9,862 nucleotides of DNA from a candidate division SR1 bacterium (lineage in GTDB: Bacteria > Patescibacteriota > Gracilibacteria > Absconditabacterales > Absconditicoccaceae). The notes beneath the pieces were generated by a model that saw nothing but the letters and a program-made list of their open reading frames with translations, was not told the origin of the DNA and did no database searches. Below, piece after piece: positions 7,033 through 9,327 of the stretch. The position numbers and the translations under genes are program-made. The stretch covers positions 1 to 9,862 of the forward strand of contig PDOX01000005.1 of the NCBI GenBank assembly GCA_002746475.1. The letters are read 5' to 3'. Positions within the stretch are counted from its first letter, which is position 1. Each line of letters begins with the position of its first letter.

Positions 7033-9327
7033 CTACTCCCCTTTCGCTTCTCTGATACTTAATTGAATTTTTCAAGTTTTTTCATCAATAGATAACACTT
7101 TTACTTGAACATCTTGTCCAACTTGTAAGAAATCATTAGGATCTTTGATAAAGGTATCTGCGATATGAGAAACATGCGCAAGCCCATCATTTTTGAGTCC
7201 AATATCTACAAAAGCACCAAATGCTACGACATTTTTCACGATTCCTGGGACAATATCTCCCTCTTGGATTTCTGAAATATCTTTGCTTGGGGTTGCTTTT
7301 TTGTGGGTTGAGATTATCCTTTTTTCTTTTCCTGCTTCGTTATATGATGAAAGAATAAATTTAATGGTATCTCTATTAGTATCGGGGTATAATTTTTGTA
7401 GTTCTTCCTGGTGAGAGGTGAAAAAATCACGAATATGTCATTCAGACCCCAAGATATTGGGGGAAGAATCCATTTGTTGAGTAGTGGATCCTTCGTTTCA
7501 CTCAGGATGACCAGTGGTTTTGTTGGTAAAATTTTCTAAAATGTATTTTGCTACTGCATATTGTTCTGGGTGGATGTCGGTATTGTCTAGTTTTTCACTA
7601 CTTTCTGGAATTCTCAGAAATCCAATCGCTTGTTCATAGGTTTTATCAGACATTTGTTTTTTCAGTTCTTCTCTTGAGGCATAGGGTCTGTTGTTATAGA
7701 TTTTTTTTGCCAGTCTTTTATCAATACCAGAAATATAATTTAACACATAGCTTGATGCATTGTTCACATTGATCCCAATGAGATTCACCACATCTTCAAC
7801 CACATTTCCAAGTTTTTCTTCAAGTTTTTTTGCTGGAACATCATGCTGATATAGTCCAACGCCAATACTTCCAACAGGGACTTTCACAAGTTCAGATAAG
7901 GGATCAATAAATCTTCTTCCAATAGAAATCGTCCCTCTATCAAGGGAATCAAGTTTTGGAAATTCTTCTTGGGCGATTTTACTGGCACTGTATACTGACG
8001 CACCTGATTCATTCACAATATAGATGTCCGTATCAGTGAGTTCTTGGACGAGGTCAATCGTTTCTTTGTTTCCTGTTCCATTCCCTATGATGACAACATC
8101 TGGTCTATGTTTTTCGAGTAAATCAGTGATAATATTTTTGGCTTCTTGGGTTCTATGGAGATAGATTTTTGTAAATGCTTGTGGATTTCCAAGCTCATCT
8201 AAAATTGCAATTTTACATCCAGCAGCATATCATGGATCTATCGCAAGAATCTTATTTCCATATTCAGGTTTGGTCATGAGTAATCTTTTGAGATTGATTT
8301 GGAAGGTCGCGATCGCATCATCTTCTCAAAGTTCTGATAAAGTGCTTCTGATTTCATTTTCTACGGATGAAAATAATGCATCATATCCTTTTTTGAAAGC
8401 AAGTTGGAGTTGAGGGATGAATACAGACCCCACCCCCTGCTCCGCAGGGACCTCCCCTCCGAGGGGAGGCTCTCACGCTTCGGCCCCTCCTTGGAGGAGG
8501 GGATACAGGGGAGGTCTGTTTTTTGACAGTACTTGTAATATCTCCGCGTACTGCTCTTGTATTGCAAGGGAATGCTCTGCTTCTTTTTCTATTTTAACAT
8601 TCAATATTCCTAGGTTTTCTCCTCTGTTTAGTGCAAGAATTTGGTAGGGTTTTAATAGGCGAATAGGATTGATGAAGTCTGAATAAATTTCAAATTTAGG
8701 GATCTGTTGTTTGTCTTTGTCATTAAGTTTTTCTAGGGATTTTTCAGTTTTATATTTTGAGCTAATATTTCCCGTTTTATTTAAGTTTTTGATAAGCGAA
8801 GCTCTTAAATCTGCGTTAGCAGAGATTTCAGCAGCAATAATTTCTTGGCATCATTCTAAAATTCCTTCAAAAGAAAAAATTTGCAAAGCTTCTGCTAATT
8901 CAGGGGTGTGTTTTGTGAGTTCTTTGTTCTGTTTGATTAGATCAGCAAAAGGTTGAAATCCATTTTCTATGGCAATCATTGCCTTCGTTTTTCTTTTTGA
9001 TTTGTAGGGTTTATAGATTTCCTCTACTTCTTTTTGCGTCTGTGCTTTTAGGATATTTTCCATTAGTTCAGGTGTCATCTTGTCCTGCTCTTCTATCCCA
9101 TTAATCGCGGTTTTTTTCGCTTCATAAAGATTTTCTAATTTCGTTTTTAATGTTAAGATATTTCTGATTTCATCTTCATCAAGATTTCCAGTTTTTTCTT
9201 TTCTATAACGAGCGATGAACGGCACGGTCGCGCCCTCATTGGTTAAATCTAATACAACTTCTACTTGTGAAGTTTGAAAATTATATTCTTGGCTAATTTC
9301 TCTGATATAATTTGGTTCTTGAAGCAT
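7033..9327 (-). CDS. tex: Tex-family RNA-binding transcription accessory protein, with two in-frame repeat insertions
   Basis: Tex (YhgF) is a cytoplasmic nucleic-acid-binding protein linked to transcription and RNA metabolism. The 764-residue length is normal for the family. In order it shows an N-terminal helical region with FIARYRKEKTG (37-47), the motif IYKPYKSKRKTKA (near 104), a YqgF/RuvC-like fold opening ILAIDPGYAAG (361-370), helix-hairpin-helix segments around YISGIDKRLAKKI (about 530-545), and a C-terminal S1 domain (about 687-757, AFGAFVDIG). Seven TGA codons encode G159, G285, G334, G366, G610, G630 and G752; G366 is the conserved DPG glycine. Residues about 270-302 come from a palindromic element and about 606-630 from a different one, both at likely loops and both open in frame. 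It is divergent from ychF, its start lacks a Shine-Dalgarno sequence, and it stops at TAG. Confidence 0.93.
7437..7511 (-). repeat. GTCAT-ended 75-bp palindromic element inside tex
   Basis: The imperfect terminal inverted repeats GTCATTCAGA (7437-7446) and TCAGGATGAC (7502-7511) match at 8 of 10 positions. Inner arms GAAGAATCC (7463-7471) and GGATCCTTC (7487-7495) also pair, with one mismatch. A perfect hairpin pairs CCCCAA (7447-7452) with TTGGGG (7457-7462). At 75 bp it adds exactly 25 codons to tex, between the helix-hairpin-helix part and the S1 domain, and two of them are TGA (Gly610 and Gly630). It is unrelated in sequence to the C/G-rich elements. From memory, such GTCATCCTGAG-type ends are common in dispersed repeats of other bacteria. 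Confidence 0.75.
8423..8519 (-). repeat. Palindromic element inserted in frame in tex
   Basis: This is a near copy of the element at 5601-5690, in the same orientation relative to its host gene. The outer stem pairs ACAGACC (8423-8429) with GGTCTGT (8513-8519). Three hairpins lie inside: CCCTGC with GCAGGG (8435-8440, 8444-8449), CCTCCCCT with its complement (8451-8469), and CCCCTCC with GGAGGGG (8484-8490, 8496-8502). The whole resembles a cloverleaf. On the minus strand it adds about 33 residues to Tex, starting NRPPLYPLLQGGAEAG, one of them a TGA glycine (G285). Confidence 0.88.

What the first reader, a model, noticed from the sequence alone, without database searches (positions are those of the whole stretch)
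8423..8519. Second copy of the same element in tex, read in a different frame
The tex copy is nearly identical over the first two hairpins and lies in the same orientation relative to its host, but the frame is shifted by one base. In rlmL the ACAGACC end is read as ACA GAC; in tex as (A)AC AGA. One DNA element therefore yields two unrelated peptides (TDLPLIPSSKEG and NRPPLYPLLQGG), both free of TAA and TAG. This suggests selection on the DNA or RNA element and tolerance, not selection, of the peptide.
Basis: seen in the sequence. Interest (0 to 1): 0.75.

Follow-up and report, generated by a model that had tools for sequence, protein, structure and literature searches.

The report
Gene-invading hairpin element with nuclease kin
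A short hairpin-rich DNA element has entered at least six housekeeping genes of a Gracilibacteria-like bacterium without breaking their reading frames, and it is likely a nuclease-less cousin of a widespread mobile element predicted to be spread by a small DNA-cutting enzyme, DUF559.

Summary
The tex and rlmL copies are one palindromic unit (93 and 88 nt), read one base out of register, open in both hosts and absent from the relatives' tex and rlmL that I examined. The genome holds 16 close copies and dozens of looser relatives. Six of the 16 sit in frame inside conserved genes (tex, rlmL, RluA-type synthase, MutS, LigA, Elp3-like), using three sense and two antisense frames; stems show compensatory changes. 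The tex insert lies in a predicted disordered loop, where the closest homologue carries a different repeat.

In two samples DUF559 genes are bounded by such hairpins (19 of 29; 24 of 31) against 2 of 106 and 0 of 112 distal pieces. DUF559 cassettes run in frame inside mnmA, rimO, tgt, elp3-like, fmt and leuS genes. I infer a DUF559-driven mobile element whose solo units are nuclease-less derivatives. That DUF559 moves them is untested.

The parts
8425..8517 (-). Tex copy of the canonical unit (93 nt)
   Evidence: covariance-model hit 94.4 bits; absent at this site in the relatives' tex that cover it
8484..8502 (-). Hairpin H1 of the tex copy
   Evidence: folds; compensatory changes in H1
8450..8470 (-). 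Hairpin H2 of the tex copy
8435..8449 (-). Hairpin H3 of the tex copy (variable in the family)
   Evidence: fold; alignment
5603..5690 (+). rlmL copy of the canonical unit (88 nt)
   Evidence: covariance-model hit 101.7 bits; 29 fetched relatives lack it
7036..9327 (-). tex (code 25), host gene
   Evidence: Pfam Tex_N, Tex_YqgF, HHH_3, S1
5211..6470 (+). rlmL-like methyltransferase (code 25), host gene
   Evidence: Pfam RlmL_1st, UPF0020
9471..9545 (.). Intergenic relative of the unit upstream of a YchF-like GTPase ORF (name recalled); its right half matches palindromes next to DUF559 in this genome's mnmA
   Evidence: covariance-model hit 41 bits; 84% over 50 nt (9511-9560) to the C50 mnmA palindromes
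4309..4420 (.). Intergenic palindromic cluster; resembles the flank of the C48 DUF559 gene
   Evidence: 75% over 51 nt to L103

Best explanation
The tex segment is a 93-nt hairpin unit, one of 16 close copies in this genome, that inserted in frame into a predicted disordered loop of Tex and is likely a nuclease-less derivative of a mobile element whose DUF559 endonuclease would drive its spread. Shown: the unit is an insertion absent from the relatives examined; copies occur in three sense and two antisense frames; its stems covary; DUF559 genes here and in distant bacteria are mostly bounded by the same kind of pyrimidine-arm/purine-arm hairpins, often with mutually inverted ends; DUF559 cassettes occur inside host genes with the host frame open through them; one decayed DUF559 in this genome is joined to the right half of this very unit. 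Inferred: DUF559 recognises the hairpin ends and nicks or cuts DNA so that the element is copied to a new site, and ends without the gene are moved in trans, as MITEs or REPs are. Inferred: insertions in genes survive only where the frame stays open and the loop tolerates 30 or so residues, so the nearly stop-free unit and a code with only two stops (TAA, TAG) widen the choice of sites.
For: Insertion: all 27 of 29 fetched tex relatives that cover the site lack own's insert, and 103 of the 119 best-listed database homologues have no extra residues there against 33 in own. None of 29 rlmL relatives fetched (of 36 with a match) has own's insert. Frames. Covariation. Link to DUF559: own genome has 3 DUF559 hits, each within about 100 nt of palindromes; the C24 palindrome half touching the DUF559 remnant matches window 5647-5676 (93%) and 8425-8471 (81%), and the mnmA palindromes match window 9511-9560 (84%). 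All 13 other relatives with unit hits at E<=0.01 have DUF559, against 32 of 58 overall (hypergeometric 1.1e-4). Strict hairpins within 200 bp of DUF559: 19 of 29 against 1.7% of 4000 control windows and 2 of 106 distal pieces; second sample 24 of 31 against 0 of 112; plasmid-collection records 8 of 9 within 300 bp. Inverted ends: left against reverse-complemented right flank, median score 30 against 12 in one sample, 15 against 11 in the other. Cassettes inside genes: 10 of 32 loci and G002 mnmA. D, E, D, H invariant in 32 of 32 aligned DUF559 domains.
Against: No intact DUF559 cassette with the AGACC...GGTCT ends of this unit was found; the assembly is 65.6% complete. At C24 the DUF559 remnant and the rest of tgt are in different frames, so that copy is decayed, and the other intragenic cassettes were recognised by their open frame. 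10 of 29 and 7 of 31 DUF559 loci lack a strict hairpin; seven more loci with weak DUF559 matches, left out of the second count, have none. In the first sample only 5 of 27 inverted-end scores exceed the highest distal score, 17 of 30 in the second. The C48 palindromes score poorly with the model (19 bits). No target-site duplication was shown. In G100 the cassette ends have no solo copies. No movement or cleavage was observed; DUF559 may itself be a passenger of palindromes. A Caulobacter DUF559 protein has been proposed as a mismatch-repair nuclease (PMC12907096, passages).
Confidence: 0.62

Rival explanations
1. REP- or RPE-like selfish palindromes moved by some other transposase (for example a Y1 RAYT) that is missing here; DUF559 genes merely prefer to land in, or be carried with, palindromes.
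For: In-frame palindromic elements are known from Rickettsia (PMC10969869, passages) and intragenic REPs from other bacteria (PMC3733652, passages). The assembly is incomplete. Three Legionella segments hold a transposase together with DUF559 (PMC12308824, passages).
Against: No Y1_Tnp match in own genome; relatives were not searched for it. DUF559 is often flanked on both sides by inverted ends in two samples, which a passenger would not explain easily.
Confidence: 0.22
2. Homing: DUF559 is a homing-type endonuclease (EDxHD/Vsr-like) that cuts specific sites in conserved genes and is copied in by repair; palindromes are accessory or protective.
For: mnmA is occupied right after GHYARI in 4 of 58 genomes with an mnmA match, in two families (coordinates); the tgt site is shared by own C24 and G029 (by eye; Pfam). 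PMC9403480 (passages) places a DUF559 gene in the EDxHD homing family.
Against: The tree puts mnmA_G048 in another clade with leuS_G017 and mnmA_G015 with rimO_G030, so nuclease lineage does not follow site; tex and rlmL sites also hold unrelated repeats in relatives, which points to tolerant loops.
Confidence: 0.2
3. Translational bypass: ribosomes hop over the structured insert, so the peptide is not made (as in T4 gene 60 and Magnusiomyces mitochondria).
For: Strong RNA hairpins; in T4 a homing endonuclease insertion and a bypassed 50-nt insert go together, and Magnusiomyces inserts are bypassed (PMC5009743, passages). At C24 the host frame is not continuous through the decayed DUF559.
Against: The 10 cassettes read as intragenic have an open frame through host, both palindromes and DUF559, which bypass does not need; but they were found by that open frame. 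Among 22 other loci, neighbours of 10 were scanned and in the 4 where both were named they differ, so no further split gene was seen.
Confidence: 0.06
4. A protein module selected for its peptide.
For: Sense copies in rlmL and Elp3-like share a frame and a similar peptide.
Against: Three sense frames and two antisense frames in conserved genes; unrelated peptides.
Confidence: 0.02

Closest known systems
Rickettsia palindromic elements (RPE)
   Same: Short palindromic units (about 150 bp by the review PMC10969869; 88-110 nt here) inserted in frame in unrelated conserved genes, and also elsewhere
   Different: Here three sense frames and antisense copies, no conserved peptide, and a tie to a nuclease gene; no RPE sequence was compared
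REP/BIME elements and RAYT REPtrons
   Same: Hairpins flanking an enzyme gene, with dispersed solo hairpins elsewhere in the genome
   Different: The enzyme is a PD-(D/E)XK/Vsr-like DUF559 nuclease, not a Y1 (HUH) transposase; no Y1 in own genome
MITEs
   Same: Short, without a gene of its own, inverted ends (AGACC...GGTCT), many copies, likely non-autonomous
   Different: No target-site duplication shown; ends covary, which suggests that pairing and not a fixed sequence is kept
EDxHD homing endonucleases (I-Bth0305I), Vsr, DUF559/VsrA
   Same: E-x-D-G-x2-H...D motif; insertion in conserved genes
   Different: No intron or intein family detected around the intragenic cassettes; read in frame with the host and bounded by palindromes
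Bypassed inserts (T4 gene 60, Magnusiomyces)
   Same: Structured inserts in coding genes, in T4 with a neighbouring homing endonuclease
   Different: Open reading frame kept through the insert

Membership tests
Rickettsia palindromic elements | palindromic unit inserted in frame in conserved genes | tested here: met
Rickettsia palindromic elements | each unit encodes a conserved peptide (as the review PMC10969869 puts it) | tested here: not met
   three sense frames and antisense copies with unrelated peptides
Rickettsia palindromic elements | sequence kinship to RPE families | not tested
   no RPE sequence fetched
REP/RAYT REPtron | Y1 (HUH) transposase partner | tested here: not met
   0 matches of PF01797 in own genome, which is 65.6% complete; not tested in relatives
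REP/RAYT REPtron | enzyme gene flanked by the hairpins, solo hairpins dispersed | tested here: met
   flanking in most loci, with DUF559 in the place of the transposase; solo copies dispersed in own genome, not found in G100
MITE | terminal inverted repeats | tested here: met
   outer stem; 2 of its 4 outermost pairs have a compensatory change
MITE | target-site duplication | tested here: inconclusive
   flanks listed; no constant duplication seen; no close empty DNA site held
MITE | autonomous element with the same ends | tested here: inconclusive
   only a DUF559 remnant joined to the right half (C24)
EDxHD/Vsr-like nuclease (for DUF559) | conserved acidic/His motif | tested here: met
   D, E, D, H invariant in 32 of 32, next D in 31 of 31 aligned; that these are the EDxHD residues is recalled
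EDxHD/Vsr-like nuclease (for DUF559) | site-specific cleavage | not testable with these tools
   needs biochemistry
Intein | protein-splicing (Hint) domain | tested here: not met
   no Hint or intein family among the Pfam hits of the DUF559-bearing ORFs scanned
Group I/II intron | intron RNA family | tested here: not met
   no Rfam family at gathering score in the 10 loci with intragenic cassettes; window only tRNAs and DUF805b
Bypassed insert (T4 gene 60 type) | ribosome hopping, insert not translated | not testable with these tools
   needs proteomics or ribosome profiling; open frames argue against it

The most novel reading that the evidence does not exclude
DUF559 nucleases are the engines of a bacteria-wide class of hairpin-ended mobile elements that can live in frame inside essential genes, translated as part of the host protein without intron or intein, and that shed nuclease-less units such as the tex and rlmL inserts.
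Probability: 0.5. Interest if true: 0.88.

Novelty: new variant of a known kind. Interest (0 to 1): 0.74.

Why it matters
The passages I saw on RPE-like in-frame palindromes name no enzyme that moves them. This family pairs such palindromes with a concrete nuclease candidate, with the same pairing seen in Deinococcus, cyanobacteria and Alphaproteobacteria, so the question of how palindromic repeats spread becomes testable. It would also explain a domain of unknown function, and would show another way, besides introns and inteins, for a nuclease gene to persist inside essential genes: by being translated in a loop that the host protein tolerates.

Tried and rejected
Protein module: rejected by the frame table. 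Y1 transposase partner: none in own genome. Known RNA family: none in the window's units or in the 10 intragenic cassettes. Exact core pattern in GTDB contigs: 11 matches, all by eye ordinary coding sequence, not elements; none in viral contigs; both tools warn that records near the window's genome may be left out. Cassette ends as a probe for solo copies in one relative of the Phenylobacterium genome (G100): only the cassette's own two ends. A shared order hairpin / small hairpin / GTGGGG at cassette ends: seen in few (7 and 6 of 36 ends for the two motifs), not claimed. Target-site duplication: flanks listed, nothing constant. The tex model is of middling quality (mean pLDDT 67); only its loop assignment is used.

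Full report
Host. The window (G000:C9) comes from a 561-kb, 102-contig, 65.6% complete assembly that reads TGA as glycine: tex and rlmL are open only with TGA as a residue, here code 25. The closest named Tex homologues are from Candidatus Gracilibacteria.

The element. Eleven copies align as a unit of 88-110 nt: ends AGACC and GGTCT, hairpin H1 (CCCCTCCTCCAAGGAGGGG), a linker around CCGAAGCG, hairpin H2 (GCCTCCCCTTGGAGGGGAGGT) and a variable H3. The consensus has 24 pairs; 6 have changes on both sides, including the two outermost pairs, where one copy has TTACC...GGTAA instead of AGACC...GGTCT. Against shuffles: 13 cells with double changes against 3.8 expected, 0 of 500 as high; sliding the pairing destroys it. 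These 11 copies also built the search model.

Copies. The model gives 96 matches at E<=10 in own genome (both strands of some places), 16 at 80 bits or more. Of these 16, six lie inside conserved genes with support on both sides: rlmL and tex, a RluA-type pseudouridine synthase on C50, MutS on C95, LigA on C11, and an Elp3-like protein on C15 whose upstream support is weak (ELP3_N, 22 bits, under the cut-off). Four lie in open frames of 333-596 aa without two-sided support (C5, C72, C52 twice). Six lie between open frames as far as seen (C81, C66, C26, C42, C3, C55); for C81, C3 and C55 both neighbours were named and differ, for C26 and C66 one was named, C42 was not scanned. Looser relatives occur in a second place of LigA and twice in MnmA. 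Unit lengths modulo 3 vary, so in-frame residence is not built into the unit; I read it as what survived.

Frames. Sense copies use phases 0 (tex), 1 (RluA-type), 2 (rlmL, Elp3-like); antisense copies use 0 (LigA) and 2 (MutS). 82 of 96 frames lack TAA and TAG, against 70.6 +/- 2.5 in 300 dinucleotide shuffles (maximum 78) and 40% in stretches drawn from the window and 14 fetched loci.

Empty sites. Of 29 fetched tex relatives, 27 cover the site and none of these has own's insert; G030 has another GC-rich insert there and G003 a stub. Of the 119 best-listed database homologues (of 7993 hits), 103 have no extra residues there, own has 33; the closest (P0003, 86% identical) carries SHPREGGDP... 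there and VIPAKAGIQ... at a second loop where own carries yet another repeat. rlmL: none of 29 fetched relatives (of 36 with a match) has own's insert; G031 has a different repeat at the site. So the same loops have been filled by unrelated repeats. In an AlphaFold2 model the tex insert (residues 270-300) is coil with pLDDT 36-38 between two helices (mean pLDDT only 67). By sequence, the rlmL insert falls in the linker that in 3ldu spans residues 132-143.

DUF559. MnmA of this genome contains, in frame, a palindrome cluster followed by a DUF559 domain, and a second palindrome cluster further on. Own genome has three DUF559 hits, each within about 100 nt of palindromes; those at C48 score only 19 bits with the model. 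At C24 a truncated DUF559 domain lies in front of the 3' part of tgt, in another frame than tgt, and is joined to a palindrome half that matches the rlmL copy (93% over 30 nt) and the tex copy (81% over 48 nt); the mnmA palindromes match the intergenic unit at window 9471-9545; the C48 flank resembles the cluster at window 4309-4420. Among 58 relatives, 32 have DUF559; all 13 with unit hits at E<=0.01 are among them (kinship is not corrected for, but within the same family it is 8 of 8 against 16 of 35). Three of the 13 rest on one hit each of E 5e-4 to 8e-3.

Hairpins bound DUF559. Criterion: perfect stem of 7 or more, loop 3-8, 5' arm at least 85% pyrimidine with four or more C. Class relatives: 19 of 29 non-own loci have one within 200 bp (16 upstream, 11 downstream, 8 both), against 1.7% (any) and 0 (both) of 4000 control windows from 20 stretches (400 kb) of 19 of these genomes, and 2 of 106 distal pieces. 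The 29 are those fetched of 55 non-own matches. Second sample (a Hyphomonadaceae genome, a Phenylobacterium genome and relatives of the latter): 24 of 31 (17 left, 19 right, 12 both), distal 0 of 112; seven of the 38 fetched loci, with weak domain matches, were left out before counting and have none. Nine loci from the plasmid collection, chosen by me from 30 listed of 47 records: 8 of 9 within 300 bp, in Deinococcota, Cyanobacteriota and Alphaproteobacteria. Ends are often mutually inverted: left flank against reverse-complemented right flank scores a median of 30 against 12 for other loci in the second sample (20 of 30 above the 95th percentile, 17 above the highest distal score), 15 against 11 in the first (11 of 27, and 5 above the highest distal score).

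Cassettes inside genes. Of 32 DUF559 loci read, 10 lie in an open frame that continues a host protein on both sides: MnmA (G000, G015, G048), RimO-like (G030, G033), Elp3-like (G041, G003), TGT (G029), LeuS (G017), Fmt (G013). They were recognised by that open frame, so out-of-frame cases could be missed; the decayed C24 copy is one where the frame is not kept. Pfam names the host on both sides in five (L102, L111, L116, L119, L123); in the other five it names one side and the rest is read by eye. G002 MnmA is a further case. A DUF559 is also fused in front of MiaA (G045), and one lies within a 1621-aa methylase-like CDS of Pseudanabaena galeata. By the coordinates, mnmA is occupied in 4 of 58 genomes with an mnmA match. 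By eye, own's solo unit in the Elp3-like gene sits in the same acidic loop as the G041 cassette. In the tree, 13 domains labelled in-gene (the 10, G002 mnmA, the C24 remnant and the MiaA fusion) cluster against 19 others (5 changes against 10.3 shuffled, 0 of 500), yet one clade serves several host genes and mnmA_G048 falls elsewhere, with leuS_G017. Only 4 of 29 inner branches reach the starred support.

Reading. Mobile hairpin-ended elements with a DUF559 gene, and solo units without it, explain the copies, the inverted ends, the shared sites and the remnant at C24. That DUF559 is the motor is inferred from structure, not shown. Insertions in genes persist, on this reading, where frame and fold allow.

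Known or new. Palindromes in frame in genes are known from Rickettsia (PMC10969869, passages; the 2002 original was not held) and intragenic REPs from other bacteria (PMC3733652, passages). DUF559 is described as Vsr-like (PMC12907096, passages) or EDxHD homing-like (PMC9403480, passages; the EDxHD family itself: PMC3943268, passages). Searches for DUF559 with palindromic (2 papers listed), with homing endonuclease (2), with transposable plus repeat (0), for DUF559 alone (12 listed, passages of 3 seen), for miniature inverted-repeat plus Vsr plus endonuclease (0), and for Gracilibacteria or Absconditabacteria with insertion terms (3 and 1 listed, not opened) showed no title or passage that ties DUF559 to palindromic ends. 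Papers outside this library were not searched.

Noticed in passing
window 7440-7520: tex carries a second in-frame insert of an unrelated repeat (reverse complement reads GGTCATCCTGAGTGAAACGAAGGATCC, a widespread repeat by recall); residues 604-627 are predicted coil, and P0003 has a VIPAKAGIQ-type repeat at the same loop.
   Followed up: partly
L168 (G031 rlmL) and P0007 tex: Other repeat families (peptides NRHCEQSEAIQ..., VIPDSDPESLDPETSSGWQ...) occupy the same rlmL and tex loops in relatives.
   Followed up: no
L027, L029, L030, L022 (G000 C25, C5, C11): Composite elements: a lone left end AGACCTCCCCTTGATCC (or close to it) followed by a unit in reverse orientation recurs at several loci, as if units insert into units.
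   Followed up: no
L124:265-3303: The open frame of the G017 LeuS with its DUF559 cassette runs on into further sequence that is not LeuS-like, including an Abhydrolase_6 match at residues 817-902.
   Followed up: no
L251:2873-7738: Pseudanabaena galeata: DUF559 with palindromes on both sides inside a 1621-aa Eco57I/MmeI-type methylase CDS near brxC.
   Followed up: partly
window 6577-6609: Rfam DUF805b RNA motif (48.8 bits) upstream of a 119-aa membrane-protein-like ORF.
   Followed up: no
window 18-1160: Seven tRNA genes, with a ribosomal-protein-S20-like ORF at 313-594 among them (gene name recalled).
   Followed up: no
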